This document shows, piece after piece, positions 1 to 6,256 of a DNA stretch of 6,256 bases. Origin of the DNA: Omnitrophica WOR_2 bacterium RIFCSPHIGHO2_01_FULL_52_10. GTDB taxonomy: Bacteria > Omnitrophota > Gorgyraeia > Zapsychrales > Zapsychraceae. The position numbers and the translations under genes are program-made. Position 1 is the first letter of the stretch, and every line of letters starts with the position of its first letter. The notes below the pieces were generated by a model. That model saw only the letters and a program-made list of their open reading frames with translations, ran no database searches and was not told the DNA's origin. The stretch lies in assembly GCA_001805565.1 (NCBI GenBank), contig MHGM01000043.1, forward strand, positions 1 through 6,256, given 5' to 3'.

Positions 1-199
1 CCAGGACCGGGATGACGCGCTCAACGCCGGGGAATACCTCCAGCGGGGTCACCTGCAGGACGTCTTCGGGGCCGATCAGTCCGATGATCGTCCTCTCCAC
101 ACCGCGCGAAAGGTGCGCCTTGACCCCCAGCTTCTCGACCTTCTCTACAATATGACCGATCTGCTCTTCCGTGACGTCGGATTTTAAAATAATGATCAT
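1..199 (-). CDS. aroF: 3-deoxy-7-phosphoheptulonate (DAHP) synthase, N-terminal fragment
   Basis: DAHP synthase condenses phosphoenolpyruvate and erythrose 4-phosphate, the first step of the shikimate pathway, in the cytosol. Only the first 66 codons are in the window; the gene runs off the left edge. The visible part begins MIIILKSDVTEEQI and contains SRGVERTIIGLIG, the small ferredoxin-like domain found at the N-terminus of Thermotoga-type (AroF/KDPS-like) DAHP synthases, where it takes part in feedback control. The catalytic barrel is not visible, so the enzyme call rests on this domain and on the pheA-hisC context. The ATG (199-197) overlaps the hisC TGA (198-196) in an ATGA arrangement, which implies translational coupling to hisC. 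The downstream part, including any fused chorismate mutase, cannot be judged. Confidence 0.85.
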   Translation of the reverse strand, partial: MIIILKSDVTEEQIGHIVEKVEKLGVKAHLSRGVERTIIGLIGPEDVLQVTPLEVFPGVERVIPVL

Positions 200-1320
200 A
201 ATACCGTCCTGCGGGGGAGATTTTGTCCGAAGGACAAAATCTGGGTTAACGCGTTTAAAAACCGCTTGTTTTCCGTTTCGGTGCCGATGGTCACGCGGAT
301 GAACTGTTTTAAGCCCCAAAAGCTCATGTCCCGCACGATGACGCCTTTGCCCAGCAACGCCTTCGCGATCCCGGAGGCGTCCTGGCGCATATCAATTAAA
401 ACAAAATTGGTATAACTTTCAACATATTTCAGGCCCAATTTGCGCGCTCCCCGGTAAAGGACTTCACGCTGGCGCTCAATTTTGCGCGCGATCGTCCGAT
501 AATATGGCTGGTCCGCAAGACACGCCAAAGCCGCGGCCTGCGCCAGGCTGTTGACGTTAAACGGCTCGCGGATACGGTTTAAACAATCCGTGATCTCTTC
601 GCCGGCAACGCCGTAGCCGATCCGCAGCCCCGCCAGGCCGTACATCTTGGAGAACGTGCGCGTGACGATGATATTTTTGTGCTTTTTCAAAAGCCCCAGC
701 GAATCGGCGTAGTCTTTGGGGCGCACGTATTCGTAATAAGCCTCGTCGATAAAGACGATGATGTTCTCGCGCAGGCCGTTTAAGAAATGCTCCAGCTGTT
801 TTTGCGTGAGATATTGGCCCGAAGGATTGTCCGGATTCCCCAAAAAAATGATCCGGGTCTTGCCGGTGACGGCTTTTTGCATCCCGGCCAGGTCGTAGGA
901 AAAATCCTTCAAAGGAATGGCCTTGACGTCGGCGCCGGCGATCCTCGCGGCAATGCCGTAGATCAAAAATGACGGGTCCGCGATGATGACCTCATCGCCG
1001 GGGTTGACGAACACGCGCACCGCCAGAACAATGATCTCATCGGAACCGTTGCCGAAAACAAGTTGTTGGGGGGGGACCTGCCAACGTTTGGCGAGCGCCT
1101 GACGCAGATAGAAGCAGTCGCCGTCGGGATAGCGATTGATGTCCCGGGCCGCGCGTTTAAGGGCCTGCAGCGCCCTGGGTGAGGGGCCGTAAGGGTTCTC
1201 GTTGGAGGCCAGCTTGATGACGCTTTTTAACCCCAGCTCCCTCTTGACTTCGTCGATGGGCTTACCGGGCACATATGGCTGGATATTGAAAATTGTCTTT
1301 TGGGCAAGTGGCCGTATCAC
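196..1320 (-). CDS. hisC: histidinol-phosphate / aromatic aminotransferase
   Basis: A fold-type I PLP aminotransferase of the HisC family, 374 aa, normal for the family. HisC converts histidinol phosphate and 2-oxoglutarate to imidazole-acetol phosphate and glutamate, or the reverse; several members also transaminate phenylpyruvate and 4-hydroxyphenylpyruvate. Visible motifs: KLASNENPYGPSP (36-48), FGNGSDEI (89-96), NPDNPSG (162-168), IDEAYYEY (191-198) with the cofactor Asp192 and Tyr195, TFSKMYGLAGLRIGY (222-236) with the Schiff-base Lys225, and FIRVTIGT near 340 with the carboxylate-binding Arg342. The start is GTG at 1320, chosen because AGGA lies 9 bases upstream and the family N-terminus fits; an upstream extension would run into pheA. 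Placement between pheA and aroF favours a role in phenylalanine/tyrosine synthesis, possibly as well as histidine. The last 12 residues are mostly encoded by a perfect palindrome and look like an added tail. Confidence 0.93.
   Translation of the reverse strand: MIRPLAQKTIFNIQPYVPGKPIDEVKRELGLKSVIKLASNENPYGPSPRALQALKRAARDINRYPDGDCFYLRQALAKRWQVPPQQLVFGNGSDEIIVLAVRVFVNPGDEVIIADPSFLIYGIAARIAGADVKAIPLKDFSYDLAGMQKAVTGKTRIIFLGNPDNPSGQYLTQKQLEHFLNGLRENIIVFIDEAYYEYVRPKDYADSLGLLKKHKNIIVTRTFSKMYGLAGLRIGYGVAGEEITDCLNRIREPFNVNSLAQAAALACLADQPYYRTIARKIERQREVLYRGARKLGLKYVESYTNFVLIDMRQDASGIAKALLGKGVIVRDMSFWGLKQFIRVTIGTETENKRFLNALTQILSFGQNLPRRTVL
218..242. repeat. perfect 11-bp stem palindrome in the hisC 3' end
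   Basis: Arms AGATTTTGTCC (218-228) and GGACAAAATCT (232-242) are perfect reverse complements with a 3-base loop. The element is in frame inside the last codons of hisC and encodes roughly residues 361-368. No T-tract follows on the coding strand and aroF starts 19 bases downstream, so it is not an obvious terminator. It resembles a small inserted palindrome; it could also modulate hisC/aroF coupling. Confidence 0.7.
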
Positions 1321-1329
1321 GAAACATTT

Positions 1330-1333
1330 TCCT
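1330..1333 (-). promoter_or_regulatory. Shine-Dalgarno for hisC
   Basis: AGGA on the coding strand, 9 bases before the GTG at 1320, in the 23-base gap after the pheA stop. It decides the GTG start over longer in-frame possibilities and over an out-of-frame ATG at about 1328. Confidence 0.65.
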
Positions 1334-1343
1334 AAAATTTTTC

Positions 1344-2414
1344 TTACTCGATGACCGGGTACGAACCGACCACCTTCAAATATTTGCACATTCCCTCGAG
1401 CCGGGAAAGCGCCTTTTGCACATTCTTGTCGAAGCGGTGCCCTTCAAAATCCACGAAAAAATAATAATCCCACGCCTTTTTTTTGGCCGGGCGCGACTCG
1501 ATTTTCGTCAAGTTGATCTTGTTCCGGACAAAGGGTGTCAGCATCGCGTGCAAGGCTCCCACTTTGTCCTTGATGGAAAATAGAATCGTCGTGCGGTCCC
1601 GTCCCGTCGGCGGAACATCGTGCGTGGCCAGAACCAGAAACCGCGTTTGATTATGAGCGATGTCCTGGATATTGCTTTTAACGACGGGCAGCCCGTAAAT
1701 CTTCGCCGCCAGGCTCGAGGCGATGGCCGCGGCGCCTTTTTCCCTGCCGGCGCGCCGGGCGGCCTCGGTCGTCGAGGCGACCCAGATCTGCCCGGCATGG
1801 GGCAGGTTATCAAGCAGCCAGTGCCGGCACTGTCCGAACACCTGCGGGTTGGAATAAATATGTTTGATCTCTTTGAGCTTCGCCGTGCGCGAGAGCAGAT
1901 TATGCGAGATCTTGACCAAAATTTGGGCGCAGGCCTTCAATTCCGAATCGACGAGAAGATCAAAGGTGTGCGTGACTGCGCCTTCGATGGAATTCTCGAT
2001 AGGGACAACGCCATAATCGCAATCACCGTGCTCAACCCTTTGGAAGACATCCTGGATGCTTTCACAGGAAACATACGCGACGCGCGAACCAAATTTTTTA
2101 TTCGCCGCCAGGTGCGTGAAGGATCCTTCCGTGCCCAGATAGGCAATACGCAAGGATTTCTCCAGAGCCAGCGAGCTTGACATGATCTCCCGGTAAATCG
2201 CCTCGAAATCCTCGTAGGACATCGGTCCGCGGTTAAGCGCCTTGATATGCTTCAAGACTTCCTTTTCCCGGTTAGGCGAATAAATGCCTTTACCGTTCTT
2301 AATCTTTTCCTTGCCAATGGCGAGGCTAAGATGGGCCCGCTGATTAAGCAACCGGACGAGTCCGCGGTCCAGGGCATCAATTTGCTTGCGTAAACTGTTA
2401 AGCGTTGTTTTCAT
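1344..2414 (-). CDS. pheA: bifunctional chorismate mutase / prephenate dehydratase (P-protein)
   Basis: Converts chorismate to prephenate and then to phenylpyruvate, the committed steps to phenylalanine. It is 356 aa, usual for a P-protein. Domain order: AroQ-type chorismate mutase (about 1-87), with residues matching the E. coli catalytic set by position: Arg9 in LRKQIDALD, Arg26, Lys37 and Glu50, while Glu85 stands where E. coli has Gln88. Prephenate dehydratase (about 88-262) follows, with AYLGTEGSFTHLAA, GVVPIENSIEGAV and NQTRF (255-259, catalytic Thr257). Last is an ACT domain (about 275-350) with GALH (286-289) and ESRP (306-309), the phenylalanine-binding motifs, so feedback inhibition by phenylalanine is expected. 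The ATG at 2414 is chosen because AGGA lies 7 bases upstream and the homologous region begins here. An in-frame extension further upstream would be an Arg/Pro-rich shadow of the scpB tail. The first 17 bases overlap the scpB end, suggesting coupled translation. Confidence 0.96.
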   Translation of the reverse strand: MKTTLNSLRKQIDALDRGLVRLLNQRAHLSLAIGKEKIKNGKGIYSPNREKEVLKHIKALNRGPMSYEDFEAIYREIMSSSLALEKSLRIAYLGTEGSFTHLAANKKFGSRVAYVSCESIQDVFQRVEHGDCDYGVVPIENSIEGAVTHTFDLLVDSELKACAQILVKISHNLLSRTAKLKEIKHIYSNPQVFGQCRHWLLDNLPHAGQIWVASTTEAARRAGREKGAAAIASSLAAKIYGLPVVKSNIQDIAHNQTRFLVLATHDVPPTGRDRTTILFSIKDKVGALHAMLTPFVRNKINLTKIESRPAKKKAWDYYFFVDFEGHRFDKNVQKALSRLEGMCKYLKVVGSYPVIE

Positions 2415-3123
2415 CAAGTTGTCCTGGTGTTTGTGCGGTGAGCGCGTCGGCGGATACTTGCGCTTGCGCAACGGCCTCGGCTTGCCCTTCTTCCTGGGGC
2501 GCGGTCTGTTCTTCGGCGGTCGGCGCCACCGGGGTTTGGCCGTCGTCATTGTCCTCCTGCGCCGGCGCCGTTAAATTCGGGAACTCTGCCAGGGCAGGAA
2601 GGTCTTCTAATGATTTCAAACCGAAATATTCCAGAAATTGCCGGGTCGTGCCGTAAAGAAACGGCCGGCCGGGGACGTCTTTACGCCCGACGGGCTTGAC
2701 CAATTCCTTGGTCAAAAGATGGGCAATAACACCGTCAGAATTAACACCACGGATTAATTCTACATCGGTGCGCGTGACCGGCTGCTTATACGCGATGATG
2801 GCCAGCGTTTCCAAAGCCGGCTTGGATAGCTTTTCTTTATGTTTGGTTTTATAAAAATCACGGATATAGCGGACATAACCGGGATTGCTCAACATCTGGT
2901 AGCCGCCGGCGATCTCCACGATCTTCATGCCGCTTTGCCGTTGTTCGTATTCCGTGCTTAAACTCTGGATGGCTCCTTTGATCTCGGCGGCGTTTAAAGT
3001 TTCCAGCACCTGCTTGATCTGCTCCAGCGTCACTGGTTTTTCGTTGACGAACAACAACGCCTCGATGACACCTTTGATATGTCGGTCCTGCTCATTACTT
3101 TCTTGCGGGAGCTGTTCTGTCAT
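2398..3123 (-). CDS. scpB: segregation and condensation protein B
   Basis: ScpB is a kleisin-associated dimer that, with ScpA and SMC, forms the bacterial condensin that organises and helps segregate the chromosome. The protein has 241 aa. Two winged-helix domains are visible: about 14-92 (GVIEALLFVNEKPVTLEQI start) and about 98-170, containing LSKPALETLAIIAYKQPVT, IRGVNSDGVIAHLL and GRPFLYGTT, which are diagnostic for the family. Residues about 187-241 are an Ala/Gln/Glu/Thr/Pro-rich acidic tail of low complexity, beyond the usual ScpB core and probably disordered. The ATG at 3123 has a GGA-rich stretch upstream, and the ruvA stop is 25 bases before it. The gene end overlaps pheA by 17 bases. 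The usual partner gene scpA is not next to it, so it must be elsewhere or absent. Confidence 0.95.
   Translation of the reverse strand: MTEQLPQESNEQDRHIKGVIEALLFVNEKPVTLEQIKQVLETLNAAEIKGAIQSLSTEYEQRQSGMKIVEIAGGYQMLSNPGYVRYIRDFYKTKHKEKLSKPALETLAIIAYKQPVTRTDVELIRGVNSDGVIAHLLTKELVKPVGRKDVPGRPFLYGTTRQFLEYFGLKSLEDLPALAEFPNLTAPAQEDNDDGQTPVAPTAEEQTAPQEEGQAEAVAQAQVSADALTAQTPGQLDENNA
2422..2425 (-). promoter_or_regulatory. Shine-Dalgarno for pheA, inside scpB
   Basis: AGGA on the coding strand, 7 bases before the pheA ATG at 2414 and inside the last codons of scpB. It settles the pheA start against a longer in-frame reading upstream. Confidence 0.65.
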
Positions 3124-3148
3124 ATTCTTTTCCGTTTCGTATGGCCCG

Positions 3149-3781
3149 TCAGTGGGGACGGATTTTTTGGTTGTAAATTTCGTTCAGTAATTCTTCCGCC
3201 GTTTTGATCGTCTTGGAACGCTCGAGGGTTTTTTGGATCATCTCCTTGGCTTCATGGCGTTTGTACTGAAGCTGCAGCAGAACATCCAATGCCTCCTCCT
3301 GCCAATCCGCGGGTTCCCTGACTTTCGACAGCCGCCCTTCCTTGTCCTGGATCAGGCCGAACTTGCCCATTTTTCCCTGGAGTTTGGCAACGATCTCTTT
3401 GGCCCGCTGGATACCGATACCGGGAAGCGTTTTTAAATAATCGACGTCGCCTTCGTGGATGGCGCGCGTGATCTCCGGGATAGGTTTATCCAGCGCCCGC
3501 ACCGCCGCGCGCGGCCCGATGCCGGAGACCTTGATGAACTGCAGAAAGAAATCTTTTTCAATCTCGTTGATAAAGCCGATCAACATCGGGATCCCCGCCG
3601 ACGGGCCTATCTGGAAGTAATGATAGATGACCAGGTGGATATCTCCCTGGGCGTCCTTCGTTTCGTCGATGCGTTCCAGGACGAAGGCCGGCACGACGAT
3701 CTCGTAAAAAACCCCGTGGACATTGACAATGAGCGAATGGTCCTGCTTTTGAACCAGTTTTCCCGAAATGCGCGCGATCAT
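3149..3781 (-). CDS. ruvA: Holliday junction branch migration protein RuvA
   Basis: RuvA binds four-way DNA junctions as a tetramer and loads the RuvB motor for branch migration in recombinational repair. The protein is 210 aa, near the family norm. Domain I (about 1-65) is the OB fold beginning MIARISGKL. Domain II carries two helix-hairpin-helix motifs, VSGIGP (85-90) and LPGIG (119-123). Domain III (about 160-203, WQEEALDVLLQL) is the RuvB-binding helical domain. The loop that in E. coli RuvA carries the acidic pin (RED) here reads QIGPSAGIP and appears acid-free and about three residues longer. The ATG at 3781 is chosen because the family N-terminus starts here; a TTG at 3850 would add 23 residues encoded by palindromic sequence. 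The Shine-Dalgarno is separated from the ATG by a hairpin. ruvB is not adjacent. Confidence 0.95.
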   Translation of the reverse strand: MIARISGKLVQKQDHSLIVNVHGVFYEIVVPAFVLERIDETKDAQGDIHLVIYHYFQIGPSAGIPMLIGFINEIEKDFFLQFIKVSGIGPRAAVRALDKPIPEITRAIHEGDVDYLKTLPGIGIQRAKEIVAKLQGKMGKFGLIQDKEGRLSKVREPADWQEEALDVLLQLQYKRHEAKEMIQKTLERSKTIKTAEELLNEIYNQKIRPH

Positions 3782-3812
3782 GTAGCCCCACGGGCAAGCC
3801 CGTGGCTCCTTT
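3782..3812 (-). promoter_or_regulatory. ruvA translation initiation region with hairpin between SD and ATG
   Basis: The coding strand has AAAGGAG (3812-3806), then CCACGGGC (3805-3798), two loop bases, GCCCGTGG (3795-3788), then six bases and the ATG. Linear SD-to-ATG spacing is 24 nt, too long for normal use. With the 8-bp hairpin folded the effective spacing is 6 nt. I infer that the hairpin brings SD and start codon into register. The arms also look like a widespread REP-like palindrome, so it may be an insertion. Confidence 0.6.
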
Positions 3813-3830
3813 CCCAAATTTACCCCCTGC

Positions 3831-3849
3831 TGATTTACTTCGTAAATCA
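3831..3849. repeat. 8-bp stem palindrome upstream of ruvA
   Basis: TGATTTAC (3831-3838) and GTAAATCA (3842-3849) form a perfect stem with a 3-base TTC loop. Its layout matches the hisC-end palindrome: an A/T-containing stem with a 3-base loop. It has no T-tract and no gene, and is probably an interspersed element. Confidence 0.55.
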
Positions 3850-3867
3850 AAGCGCTGGCCGAGTAGG

Positions 3868-3881
3868 CTCCCTGCAGGGAG
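3868..3881. repeat. 14-bp perfect palindrome in the ruvC-ruvA gap
   Basis: CTCCCTGCAGGGAG is its own reverse complement. It has no spacer, so it could be a protein-binding dyad or another small repeat element. No promoter consensus is recognisable beside it. Confidence 0.45.
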
Positions 3882-3925
3882 GGGTTATCCTCCTCCGCCG
3901 ACCTCTGGCGAAATCCGACGTAGCG

Positions 3926-3973
3926 CCACGGATTTTTGCTTCACATTCATCCACAAGAGGCAAAAAGCCGTGG
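3926..3973. repeat. 14-bp stem-loop just after the ruvC stop
   Basis: CCACGGATTTTTGC (3926-3939) pairs with GCAAAAAGCCGTGG (3960-3973) with a single mismatch (3932/3967), enclosing a 20-base loop. On the coding strand it begins 2 bases after the ruvC TGA. The T-run lies inside the stem rather than after it, so this is not a classical intrinsic terminator. It could partly attenuate readthrough into ruvA or protect the ruvC mRNA end. Confidence 0.6.
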
Positions 3974-3975
3974 TA

Positions 3976-4476
3976 TCATGCGGAGTCGGATAATAATGAG
4001 GTTCGGCAGTGCAAATGAATATATCCTAACGCCAGCGCGAGCGCGTCGCTCGCGTCTAAAGTCAATTTGGCCTCATCCAGGCCCAGGGCGTGGGCCACGA
4101 CCCGGCGGACCTGCATTTTCGAGGCGTTGCCGTCTCCGCTTAAGGCCTGGCGGATGCGTTTGACGCTGTGTTCGGCCAGCCCCAGGTCTTTTTGCGCGCA
4201 TAACAGACAAATGACCCCGCGTACGTGGCCCAGAATGCTCGCCGTCGTCGGATGGTTGTAATGCGCGTATAATTTTTCAAGGACCAAAACATCGGGCTTG
4301 TATTGCTCGATCAACTCGCCCAGCAAACTGTAAATCGTCTTGATACGGTTCTGGATAAAATCTTTTTGCTTCGGCTCGATCGTTCCCGTTTCCAGCAAAC
4401 TGACCCGGCGGTGCTGATATTCTACCACGCCGTAACCGGTCGCCTTCAACCCTGGATCAATACCGATGATCTTCAT
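3976..4476 (-). CDS. ruvC: crossover junction endodeoxyribonuclease RuvC
   Basis: RuvC is a dimeric, Mg-dependent nuclease that cuts Holliday junctions symmetrically after RuvAB-driven migration. It has 166 aa, typical for the family, with an RNase H-like fold. The four catalytic acids are visible: Asp7 in IGIDPGLKATGYG, Glu67 in VLEKLY, and Asp141 and Asp144 in LDASDALALALG. The segments HPTTASILGHVRG and ALSGDGNASKMQV are also family-typical. The ATG at 4476 lies 2 bases after the yebC stop, with no strong Shine-Dalgarno, so translation probably depends on ribosomes finishing yebC. The yebC-ruvC-ruvA order is common in bacteria. The short C-terminal tail after residue 152 is variable in the family. 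Confidence 0.97.
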   Translation of the reverse strand: MKIIGIDPGLKATGYGVVEYQHRRVSLLETGTIEPKQKDFIQNRIKTIYSLLGELIEQYKPDVLVLEKLYAHYNHPTTASILGHVRGVICLLCAQKDLGLAEHSVKRIRQALSGDGNASKMQVRRVVAHALGLDEAKLTLDASDALALALGYIHLHCRTSLLSDSA

Positions 4477-4478
4477 TT

Positions 4479-5228
4479 TTATTGGGCGATCTTGTCCATT
4501 TCTTCGTCAGGGATATCGAAGTTCGCGTAGACATTCTGGACGTCTTCCTGCTCTTCCAGGGCCTCCATGAGCGACAACAACGACCTGGCCTCCTCGCCGA
4601 CAACACGCACATACGTGCTAGGCAGCTTGGTCATCTCAGCGGCAGCGATCGGGATGCCCTTGGCCGTGATGGCGTCCTTGACCTTCTGAAAGCTGGGGAT
4701 ATCGCAGGTAATGTCGTAGCTCTGCCCTGCGGAGTTGATGTCTTCAGCCCCCGCGTCAAGAGCGATCTCCATCAATGTTTCTTCGTTGGCCTTGCCCTTC
4801 TCGATGGACAGGAATCCTTTTTTAGTGAACAAATACGACGTCGCGCCCGGGCCGGCCAGGCTGCCGCTTTTCTTGGAAAGGATATTGCGTATCTCCGCGG
4901 TCGTGCGGTTCTTATTGTCCGTCAATCCCTCGATCAACATCGCGACACCCCCGGGGCCATAGGCGTCGAAGGTCACGTTCTCATAAACGACGCCAGGAAG
5001 CTCGCCGGTCCCCTTCTTGACGGCATTTTCAATGTTCACCAAAGGCATGTTAATGCCTTTAGCGCGTTCGATGGCCGCTCTTAAACGCGCGTTGGAGTCA
5101 AGACTGCCGCCGCCGTCTTTGGCCGCCGCCGTGATCTCACGGATCATCTTGGTGAACGCCGCGCCGCGCTTGGCGTCTTCCGCGCCTTTTTTATGTTTGA
5201 TCTTTGCCCATTTTGAATGACCTGACAT
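4479..5228 (-). CDS. yebC: YebC/PmpR/TACO1 family protein
   Basis: A 249-aa protein of the YebC family. It was long annotated as a DNA-binding transcriptional regulator; bacterial and mitochondrial (TACO1) members have also been linked to translation, helping ribosomes through difficult stretches such as polyproline. Family signatures: MSGHSKWAKIKHKKGAEDAK at the start, RGAAFTKMIREI, AIERAKGINMPLVNIENAV, YGPGGVAMLIEGLTDNKNRT and GSLAGPGATSYLF. Length and three-domain layout are normal. The start is supported by GGAGGA (5243-5238), 9 bases before the ATG. It lies 43 bases downstream of the RNase P RNA 3' end and 2 bases upstream of ruvC. An adjacent ruvC is the usual neighbourhood for this gene. 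Confidence 0.96.
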   Translation of the reverse strand: MSGHSKWAKIKHKKGAEDAKRGAAFTKMIREITAAAKDGGGSLDSNARLRAAIERAKGINMPLVNIENAVKKGTGELPGVVYENVTFDAYGPGGVAMLIEGLTDNKNRTTAEIRNILSKKSGSLAGPGATSYLFTKKGFLSIEKGKANEETLMEIALDAGAEDINSAGQSYDITCDIPSFQKVKDAITAKGIPIAAAEMTKLPSTYVRVVGEEARSLLSLMEALEEQEDVQNVYANFDIPDEEMDKIAQ

Positions 5229-5237
5229 GACTTGATT

Positions 5238-5243
5238 CCTCCG
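5238..5243 (-). promoter_or_regulatory. Shine-Dalgarno for yebC
   Basis: GGAGGA on the coding strand, 9 bases before the ATG at 5228, in the short spacer after rnpB. It is the strongest ribosome-binding site in the window. Confidence 0.75.
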
Positions 5244-5440
5244 TCTTCTACCACTGATTTAATCGAAATGAAAAGCAGGCCAATAAGCCGAGTTTTGTCC
5301 CTCTAAAAAGAGGTGACGGTTATTCAACTAACTCCAGGGATTACTCCCCCCTCCACCGCATTAGGTTTAGGGTCTCGCCTTTCGGCTCGATGGACTCTTG
5401 CGGCCTACCCGGGAATGTTGACGGAGCGGATCACCCCGTT

Positions 5441-5583
5441 ACCTTAAAATCCTAAATCCGAATATCGAAATCCGAAACAATATCTAAATCGCAATGTTCA
5501 AATTCCGAAACCGACCGTTTAGAACATTTATCATTCAGGATTTTATTTATTGTTTCGGATTTCGTGCTTCGAATTTTACAGGT
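5441..5583. repeat. 143-nt A/T-rich hairpin insert in the rnpB P16/P17 region
   Basis: An imperfect inverted repeat between P15 5' and the L15 site. Nested pairings on the RNA strand: ACCT with AGGT (5583-5580/5444-5441), TAAAAT with ATTTTA (5578-5573/5450-5445), a perfect 17-bp stem of CGAAATCCGAAACAATA (5564-5548) with its complement (5482-5466), AATGTTC with GAACATT (5528-5522/5499-5493), and an AAAC/GTTT tip. CGAA recurs every 7 bases in one arm (5571, 5564, 5557) and TTCG every 7 bases in the other (C at 5474, 5467, 5460). The base composition contrasts with the GC-rich RNA core. Confidence 0.85.
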
Positions 5584-5640
5584 ATCTTCCCCTATTCGGC
5601 CTTGCTCCATGCAGAGATTGCTCGTTTCACTCTTTTAAGT

Positions 5641-5702
5641 CGTCAGCTTTCAGTCATCAGCTATCAGTAAAACACCTGAAGGCTGACGACTGAAGACTGA
5701 TG
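5641..5702. repeat. 62-nt heptad-repeat hairpin insert in the rnpB P12 region
   Basis: The plus strand has TCAG starting at 5643, 5650, 5657 and 5664, and CTGA starting at 5676, 5683, 5690 and 5697: four copies each at an exact 7-base period, in inverted orientation. The arms pair as RNA over 19 positions (5700-5682 with 5643-5661) with a single C-A mismatch, plus an inner TCAG/CTGA step. The outer CTTTT/AAAAG pairing (5711-5707/5636-5632) continues the P12 stem, so the element sits at the P12 tip. Confidence 0.85.
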
Positions 5703-5865
5703 GCTCAAAAGCATCGTCACTGTAGCTCTGATCTTCCGCCCCTTACCTTTGATCCAGGAAAAGGGGAGGAACCTTGAGTTAACAAGGTGCATTATCCTTC
5801 GGAGCTCGGACTTTCCTCCGCGCTGTTGTCGACCCCCCGCCTCACCCGCTCTGAAGGGGCGTGGC

Positions 5866-6256
5866 TCAGGGTTGACTCTGAAGGCCCCGCTTTGCGGGGC
5901 CGAATGAGTCAAACAGCGTGGCAACCATCTTGGCCTGCTTTTTGTTGATATTGTGCAAAGAGCTGGCAGCTAACTTGTCCGCTTCTTTGTTCTTTTCGCG
6001 GGGGACGTGGACCAACTCGACGTTCGCGAACCCGCGTTTGAGCTGCTGGACCTGATCGTGAAGGAACTTCAATTTCTGGTCCTTGACCTTATAGCTTCCG
6101 GTCAATTGATGGAACATCAACTCACTGTCCGTAAAAATCTTCACCCGTACCGCTTTCAGGATCAACGCTTCCTGCAAGGCGCATATCAGTGCCGAATATT
6201 CGGCGATATTGTTGGTCGCTTCGCCGATGGATCTGGAGATCTCCGCGATCGTTTTA
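5866..6256 (-). CDS. rnhA: ribonuclease HI family protein, C-terminal part
   Basis: RNase HI-type enzymes cut the RNA strand of RNA-DNA hybrids. The 5' end is outside the window; 129 codons are visible. The catalytic acids that remain are Glu19 (visible numbering) in EATNNIAEYSALICAL, Asp43 in IFTDSELMFHQL and Asp93 in REKNKEADKLA. The first Asp of the four, and the true start, are beyond the right edge. The TNNIAEYSAL form is typical of the small RNase HI-like group (YpdQ-like) rather than E. coli RnhA, so substrate range is uncertain. A tail of about 33 residues follows the last catalytic Asp; its end, GPAKRGLQSQP, is largely encoded by a GC palindrome. The stop lies about 13 bases before the RNase P RNA 5' end. 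An ATG-like start inside the visible part would remove Glu19 and is not credible. Confidence 0.88.
   Translation of the reverse strand, partial: KTIAEISRSIGEATNNIAEYSALICALQEALILKAVRVKIFTDSELMFHQLTGSYKVKDQKLKFLHDQVQQLKRGFANVELVHVPREKNKEADKLAASSLHNINKKQAKMVATLFDSFGPAKRGLQSQP
5883..5901. repeat. 8-bp GC palindrome at the end of the RNase HI-like gene
   Basis: GGCCCCGC (5883-5890) and GCGGGGCC (5894-5901) pair perfectly around a 3-base loop. It lies in frame in the last codons before the stop and about 30 bases before the rnpB 5' end. It has no U-tract, so intrinsic termination is unlikely, though it could pause polymerase or block exonucleases before rnpB processing. Confidence 0.6.

What the first reader, a model, noticed from the sequence alone, without database searches (positions are those of the whole stretch)
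5272..5852. RNase P RNA gene interrupted by two different palindromic inserts
The conserved type A core is intact on both sides of each insert (P4, P5, L15, P15 and the P1 closure), yet the gene is about 580 nt. Removing the two hairpins (about 62 and 143 nt) gives about 376 nt, the normal size. Both inserts sit in peripheral stems known to vary in length, and each is flanked by pairing that continues the host helix. This resembles palindromic elements that spread into genes where they are tolerated, as with Rickettsia palindromic elements, but here twice in one essential ribozyme. Whether the inserts stay in the mature RNA or are cut out, as with rRNA intervening sequences, is unknown.
Basis: partly seen in the sequence, partly recalled or inferred. 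Interest (0 to 1): 0.78.

Follow-up and report, generated by a model that had tools for sequence, protein, structure and literature searches.

The report
Ribozyme gene hosting three palindromic repeats
In an uncultured Omnitrophota bacterium the predicted gene for the RNA of RNase P is about 672 bases long because three different palindromes, each also found elsewhere in the same genome, sit in its outer loops, and since most close relatives have these spots empty or filled differently the extra hairpins are likely passengers that the ribozyme tolerates.

Summary
rnpB lies on the minus strand and runs to 5942, not 5852: a perfect 13-bp P1 joins 5942-5930 to 5283-5271, giving a predicted gene of about 672 nt. 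Each belongs to a different repeat family with copies elsewhere in the same genome (1, 13 and 5 other places). Most same-genus rnpB genes have these points empty or filled with other hairpins. A fourth extra arm, in P18, is not a dispersed repeat. Two of the three palindromes have a 7-nt internal period. In the family (29 genes read) different genomes carry different long hairpins in P3, P9/10, P12, J16/17, P18 or P19, while tmRNA stays 370-428 nt in 32 genomes. Most likely these are selfish palindromes inserted where the ribozyme tolerates them; whether they stay in the mature RNA or are cut by RNase III is untested. In passing: an RNase-H-like reading frame runs about 70 nt into rnpB in most of the order.

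The parts
5271..5942 (-). predicted rnpB, class A RNase P RNA, about 672 nt (ends set by P1)
   Evidence: Rfam itself gives 5268-5852
5930..5942 (-). P1 5' strand (AAAAGCAGGCCAA), pairs with 5271-5283
5271..5283 (-). P1 3' strand (TTGGCCTGCTTTT)
5828..5907 (-). insert 1, in the P3 loop: two-hairpin element, preceded by TTGAC and ending TCGAC; same element in G003 rnpB and at other places in G000, G002, G003
5807..5818 (-). conserved core GAGGAAAGTCCG (P4/P5)
5632..5711 (-). insert 2 with its stem, in P12: 7-nt-periodic TCAG palindrome; 13 other places in the genome
5438..5584 (-). insert 3, between P16 and P17: long 7-nt-periodic TTCGG/CCGAA palindrome; 5 other places in the genome; shared at this point with G001 and, in its outer arms, G021
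5422..5437 (-). P17 hairpin, intact beside insert 3
5350..5391 (-). extra P18 arm, shared with G001, G002 and G005; not a dispersed repeat
5866..6255 (-). RNase-H-like reading frame (PF13456), open at the window edge, whose 3' end overlaps the 5' end of rnpB and stops inside insert 1

Best explanation
The predicted rnpB gene (5942-5271, minus strand) contains three palindromes of three different families that also occur elsewhere in the same genome, and each is likely a mobile or self-amplifying palindromic repeat that inserted into a peripheral loop (P3, P12, J16/17) and would fold as a rod on the outside of the ribozyme. Shown: the dispersed copies, conserved core sequence on both sides, empty or differently filled points in most congeners, and the 7-nt period of two of the three. 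Inferred: that they arrived by insertion; that they are tolerated because these loops lie outside the catalytic core; that they add no function. Committed but untested: the hairpins stay in the RNA as helical extensions, the longest ones perhaps nicked by RNase III without loss of activity.
For: Copies elsewhere in G000: P12 family 13 other places, J16/17 family 5, P3 family 1 (places counted by merging rows that overlap or lie side by side). Of the 13 other P12-family copies 9 overlap no frame of 100 aa or more and 4 overlap a frame end or start. Points in congeners: G002 has a 29-nt P12 segment against 88; G004 has nothing between GGGGAAGA and P17; G001, G002, G004 and G005 have an uninserted P3 loop. 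Four copies of the P3 element outside rnpB and the one in G003's rnpB keep the same ends, to within one base (4 of the 9 places outside rnpB listed were read). At an ordinary intergenic site G004 has a few bases where G000, G001, G003 and G005 each have a palindrome. tmRNA of 32 genomes of the same set stays 370-428 nt. In two other genomes an rnpB insert also matches its own genome: G010 52 matches at home and 0 in five others; G005 44 at home.
Against: G016's P12 palindrome has no other copy in its own genome (83% complete), and G021's P12 hairpin matched only itself, so not every rnpB hairpin is a dispersed repeat. The P18 arm is not dispersed either. Six of 14 inserts tested, the window's P3 one among them, have no 7-nt period, and the window is not among the 9 of 81 genes that pass the stricter whole-gene test. 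In a plain fold of the whole RNA P16 (0.17-0.26) and the base of insert 3 (0.29-0.33) are not favoured. Of the other G000 copies, 2 of 5 of the J16/17 family and the single P3-family one overlap a frame of 100 aa or more. No mobilising enzyme was tied to the repeats: G003 carries copies but has no Y1 transposase match. The genome is a draft, 59.7% complete, and the P12 insert is seen in one assembly only.
Confidence: 0.8

Rival explanations
1. The extra arms are ordinary lineage-specific growth of peripheral helices (expansion segments) and their likeness to repeats elsewhere is low-complexity coincidence.
For: The P18 arm behaves so: shared by four congeners, no strong copy elsewhere. Peripheral segments vary widely in length across the order. 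G016's palindrome has no second copy.
Against: The P3 element has sharp ends shared with unrelated places; the P12 and J16/17 sequences recur at 13 and 5 other places in the genome but at none in congeners G002 and G004, G004 being 86% complete.
Confidence: 0.12
2. The hairpins work like rRNA intervening sequences: RNase III cuts them out and the P RNA functions in pieces.
For: The P12 stem has 31 pairs and the J16/17 stem a 17-bp uninterrupted run, long enough by general knowledge to be RNase III substrates; G005's P9/10 hairpin is longer still.
Against: No RNA data; no excision signal was tested. Passages read in PMC2800124 say that hairpin elements in fungal mitochondrial genes and GC clusters in yeast mitochondrial rRNAs are not removed from the RNA.
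Confidence: 0.3
3. The long gene is an assembly chimera or a decayed rnpB copy.
For: Draft genome of 105 contigs, 59.7% complete; the window is one whole contig; parts of the gene have different nearest relatives.
Against: Two inserts recur at the same points in other assemblies (P3 in G003, J16/17 in G001 and, in its arms, G021); core motifs and P1 are intact; it is the only rnpB match in the genome at E 0.001.
Confidence: 0.04
4. The arms have a function, such as binding a protein or regulating P RNA.
For: None beyond persistence.
Against: Sequence, place and number change between congeners.
Confidence: 0.05

Closest known systems
STRR repeats inside rnpB of heterocyst-forming cyanobacteria (Vioque 1997, NAR 25:3471; only its title seen, in the reference list of PMC2858038)
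   Same: Short repeats, dispersed elsewhere in the genome (recalled), sit inside rnpB; the unit is 7 nt (recalled), as in two of the inserts here
   Different: Tandem (by the title); palindromic here; another phylum; here three families in one gene, at three points
Heptameric repeats of Xanthomonas and Nostoc (PMC4692102, passages read)
   Same: 7-nt units; in Xanthomonas 70 and 75 cases of two sites in convergent orientation, that is inverted repeats
   Different: G-rich units; no mention of rnpB or RNase P in the text; here units differ from genome to genome
TAACTGA heptamer repeats of marine Beggiatoaceae (PMC4679880, passages read)
   Same: Dispersed intergenic 7-nt repeats
   Different: Direct repeats; no mention of rnpB, RNase P or palindromes in the text
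Repetitive hairpin-forming elements in sponge mitochondrial DNA (PMC2800124, passages read)
   Same: Hairpin elements mostly in intergenic regions, sometimes in length-variable parts of rRNA genes
   Different: Mitochondrial; not RNase P RNA in the passages read
Rickettsia palindromic elements (recalled; the paper tried is not held)
   Same: Palindromes spread into genes where the product tolerates them
   Different: Best known from protein genes kept in frame (recalled); sequence kinship not tested
REP/REPIN elements with RAYT (Y1) transposases (PMC2817692 and PMC3116915, starts of abstracts in a search listing only)
   Same: Short extragenic palindromes in many copies
   Different: No consistent link to a Y1 transposase here
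Intervening sequences in 23S rRNA (recalled)
   Same: Hairpins inserted at peripheral helix tips of a structured RNA
   Different: Excision not shown here; RNase P RNA instead of rRNA

Membership tests
Bacterial RNase P RNA class A (RF00010) | Covariance-model score above the gathering threshold, both ends covered | tested here: met
   100.5 against 100 bits, model 1-367, although with the wrong 5' end
Bacterial RNase P RNA class A (RF00010) | P1 closure | tested here: met
   13 bp, 5942-5930 with 5283-5271
Bacterial RNase P RNA class A (RF00010) | P13/P14 present, as in the consensus | tested here: not met
   0 residues for 43 model positions; the segment is 8-17 nt in the 74 of 81 genes measured; that these helices are not universal is recalled
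Bacterial RNase P RNA class A (RF00010) | Catalytic activity | not testable with these tools
   needs RNA
Dispersed palindromic repeat | Multiple copies in the same genome, mostly extragenic | tested here: met
   13, 5 and 1 other places; clear of frames of 100 aa or more: 9 of 13, 3 of 5 and 0 of 1
Dispersed palindromic repeat | Empty site in a relative | tested here: met
   rnpB points in G001-G005; intergenic site B in G004
REP/RAYT system | Y1 transposase in genomes with the palindromes, flanked by copies | tested here: inconclusive
   Y1 found in 4 of 6 congeners, none in G003 although it carries copies; one of seven Y1 matches (G005 C19) has a J16/17-family copy about 200 bp away; the hairpin scan at six Y1 loci found none, not even that one, so it had no power
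MITE | Target-site duplication | tested here: inconclusive
   the P3 element has TTGAC or one-base variants at both ends; the empty loop reads TTGAC in G001, TTGAT in G002, TCGAC in G005; not separable from element ends
Cyanobacterial STRR in rnpB | 7-nt unit inside rnpB | tested here: met
   lag-7 identity exceeds all 1000 shuffles for the P12 and J16/17 inserts, not for the P3 one
Cyanobacterial STRR in rnpB | Sequence of the cyanobacterial repeat families | not tested
   no cyanobacterial sequence was fetched
Rickettsia palindromic element | Sequence family and in-frame insertion in protein genes | not tested
   no reference sequence compared
rRNA-type intervening sequence | Excision from the RNA | not testable with these tools
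   needs RNA data

The most novel reading that the evidence does not exclude
rnpB of this Omnitrophota order is a standing landing site for a kind of palindrome whose arms are built on a 7-nt (sometimes 8- or 9-nt) unit largely private to each genome; the same rnpB helices and the same intergenic sites are rewritten from lineage to lineage in the local unit, which points to an unknown amplification or conversion machinery rather than to one transposon family.
Probability: 0.3. Interest if true: 0.78.

Novelty: new variant of a known kind. Interest (0 to 1): 0.62.

Why it matters
It gives a natural series of RNase P RNAs with different extra rods at P3, P9/10, P12, J16/17, P18 and P19, a ready map of which outer loops of an essential ribozyme are free. 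It also shows palindromes with short-period units replacing one another at the same place in related genomes, which makes the open question of how such repeats spread testable. For annotation it warns that Rfam can misplace the 5' end of rnpB by 90 nt when P3 is invaded.

Tried and rejected
Rejected: P17 as site of the longer insert (P17 is intact beside it). Rejected: Rfam's 5' end at 5852. Rejected: the P18 arm as a fourth dispersed element. The miRNA matches lie below their gathering scores and are taken as chance matches to palindromes. Y1 transposase as mobiliser: no consistent association; the hairpin scan was ungapped and missed a known copy, so it says nothing. Self-templating of each palindrome (an arm matching its partner better than arms of other copies): within 0.81 against between 0.77, permutation p 0.027, 13 copies of which one (C90b) was folded wrongly and kept; too weak to use. 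One search's automatic 5' ends are wrong in at least L034, L083, L095, L099 and L110 (P1-P3 segments of 147-180 nt), so lengths of those are not used. In one search the probes labelled P9 and 'P12 ins' were set in the wrong register and are not used; one search used a transcript that lacked part of P1 and was replaced. In one search the G005 site-B stretch was not extracted; its palindrome is seen by eye and was not folded. Site A is not used as a second case of replacement: G001 and G005 are alike there, and none of its stretches was folded. Papers: in titles and starts of abstracts, searches list nothing on palindromes in bacterial rnpB; of these papers five were opened, as passages only; the STRR title came. 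The library holds open-licence papers only.

Full report
What the gene is. Rfam places a class A RNase P RNA at 5852-5268 on the minus strand (100.5 bits, gathering 100). The 5' end is wrong: the congeners begin with AAAGCAGGCC or nearly so, the same letters stand at 5942-5930 in the window, and they pair perfectly with the 3' end at 5283-5271; folding 5942-5268 gives pair probabilities of 0.56-1.00 along these 13 pairs and at most about 2e-6 for the 5852 region. The predicted gene is therefore about 672 nt. It is the only rnpB match at E 0.001 in this 0.9-Mb draft genome (59.7% complete).

Whose genome. 

The three inserts. (1) P3 loop, 5828-5907: two hairpins, from TTGACTC to TCGAC. G003 has the same element at the same point (89% over 62 of 81 columns); G001, G002, G004 and G005 have a plain loop, which reads TTGAC in G001, TTGAT in G002, TCGAC in G005 and TTCAC in G004. 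One search lists nine places outside rnpB in 29 genomes; the four best, in G000, G002 (two) and G003, were read and carry the element with the same ends, to within one base, in unrelated flanks. (2) P12, 5632-5711: a palindrome on a TCAGNNN unit, not seen in the rnpB of any congener. A search with it gives 18 matches at 14 places in G000 including rnpB, 33 matches in G001, 15 in G003, 11 in G005, none in G002 and G004; 7 of 29 genomes match. (3) J16/17, 5438-5584: a long TTCGG/CCGAA palindrome; 10 matches at 6 places in G000 including rnpB, 55 in G001, 30 in G003, 11 in G005, none in G002 and G004; 12 of 29 genomes match. G001 has it at the same point (91% over the insert) with a further small palindrome inside it. 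G021, of another genus, has the same outer arms at the same point with another small palindrome in the middle (96% over 67 nt across the left junction, 88-90% across the right). G003 and G005 have a different short hairpin there, G002 another, G004 none.

The fourth arm. P18 is about 42 nt longer than in G003 and G004; G001, G002 and G005 share it. Apart from one weak 28-nt match in G001 (E 0.009) it has no copy outside rnpB in the six congeners, so it is an ordinary helix growth, not a repeat.

Internal period. For 14 rnpB inserts or segments of twelve genomes, chosen by eye, identity at a distance of 7 nt exceeds at least 998 of 1000 shuffles in 8, including inserts 2 and 3, and not in 6, including insert 1; a control string of the window's core does not. 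Scanning 81 whole genes, 9 have a stretch with a 7-nt period above all 300 random sequences of like composition, against 3 for 6 nt, 1 for 4 nt and 0 for 5 and 8-12 nt; the window is not among the 9.

The wider picture. One search found rnpB in 122 of 141 genomes. In 81 anchored genes (71 of the order including the window, 10 of other orders picked mostly for length) the long segment changes from genome to genome (some 5' ends there are wrong, see Tried and rejected). In the 29 genes of the family read as sequence, long hairpins lie in P3, P9/10, P12, J16/17, P18 or P19. tmRNA, another structured RNA, spans 370-428 nt in the 32 of 38 genomes with a match over the cut-off; G000 and G001 are among the six without one. 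An rnpB palindrome matches its own genome in G010 (52 matches at home, 0 in five others) and G005 (44 at home, 9 in G000, 12 in G029, 1 in G001, 0 in G002, G003, G004 and G016), but not in G016 (only itself); G021's P18 palindrome has two further matches at home and two in G001, its P12 hairpin none.

Ordinary sites. Of 13 other P12-family copies in G000, 9 lie clear of any frame of 100 aa or more and 4 overlap a frame end or start; for the J16/17 family 3 of 5 are clear, and the one P3-family copy overlaps a frame. At site B (between two genes of contig C90) G004 has a few bases, while G000, G005, G001 and G003 each have a palindrome of different sequence: 7-nt period in G000, TCAGTGG units in G005 (by eye), 9 or 8 nt in G001, 8 nt in G003. 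At site A G004 again has the shortest spacer, but G001 and G005 are alike there. So at one site a palindrome persists while its sequence is replaced. Together with P12, where G000, G010, G016 and G029 carry different periodic units, this is the basis of the novel case.

Mosaic. Nearest relatives of the window differ along the region: P3 insert G003, J16/17 insert G001, P18 to P1 G005 (97-98%), the spacer after rnpB G002 (100% over 42). Recombination among congeners, or loss of inserts, would explain it; no formal test was made.

Mechanism. The inserts lie at loop ends or at a junction outside the conserved core. In a plain fold P1, P3 base, P12 base and P17 keep pair probabilities of 0.7 or more at nearly all pairs, but P16 only 0.17-0.26 and the base of insert 3 only 0.29-0.33, although both form when that segment is folded alone; P4 and P6 are pseudoknots that such a fold cannot show. 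I conclude tolerated insertion. Retention in the RNA is my commitment, fragmentation by RNase III the main rival; neither was tested.

Overlap of an RNase-H-like frame with rnpB. The frame upstream (PF13456, E 6.8e-20) has no stop before rnpB. Across the order it enters P4: of 70 loci tested (of 71), 52 read into GAGGAAAG, 51 of them in one frame, at nine different distances that are all multiples of three (87-156 nt), ending mostly ...EESPSS(K/E/R)G and stop. In 18 the frame ends earlier, 9 of them out of that frame; in the window and G003 the stop lies in the P3 insert. With random frames a third would be expected. The loci are related, so no probability is given. Paper searches on rnpB with overlapping frames listed nothing on it by title or start of abstract.

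Known or new. Repeats inside rnpB are on record for cyanobacteria (title of Vioque 1997 seen). Hairpin elements in rRNA genes (PMC2800124) and heptameric repeats, partly in inverted pairs (PMC4692102), are known (passages). Three families in one rnpB, differing from species to species, were not found in the ten paper searches named in Tried and rejected. I call it a new variant of a known kind.

Noticed in passing
window 5866-6255 (-) and loci L031-L100: An RNase-H-like reading frame runs about 70 nt into rnpB in the same sense: 52 of 70 loci read into the P4 stretch, 51 of them in one frame at nine distances that are all multiples of three, giving a tail ...EESPSSKG. Cutting the mature 5' end of P RNA would remove that stop codon.
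   Followed up: partly
L295 5653-5736 and L302-L305 (site B): One orthologous intergenic site carries a different palindrome in each of four congeners and almost nothing in G004.
   Followed up: partly
window 4479-5942 and L202-L206: Nearest relative changes along the rnpB region, as if congeners had recombined inside the gene.
   Followed up: partly
L050 (G021 rnpB): Other genus with the same J16/17 outer arms and a nested GTCCGCCTCAGGCGGAC palindrome, plus a GCAGGCAGG palindrome in P18 with matches elsewhere in G021 and G001.
   Followed up: partly
window 5590-5640: P13 and P14 of class A RNase P RNA are missing here, and the same segment is only 8-17 nt in the 74 of 81 genes where it could be measured.
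   Followed up: no
window 196-5228 (-): Ordinary neighbours on the minus strand: YebC, RuvC, RuvA, ScpB, chorismate mutase/prephenate dehydratase, aminotransferase.
   Followed up: no
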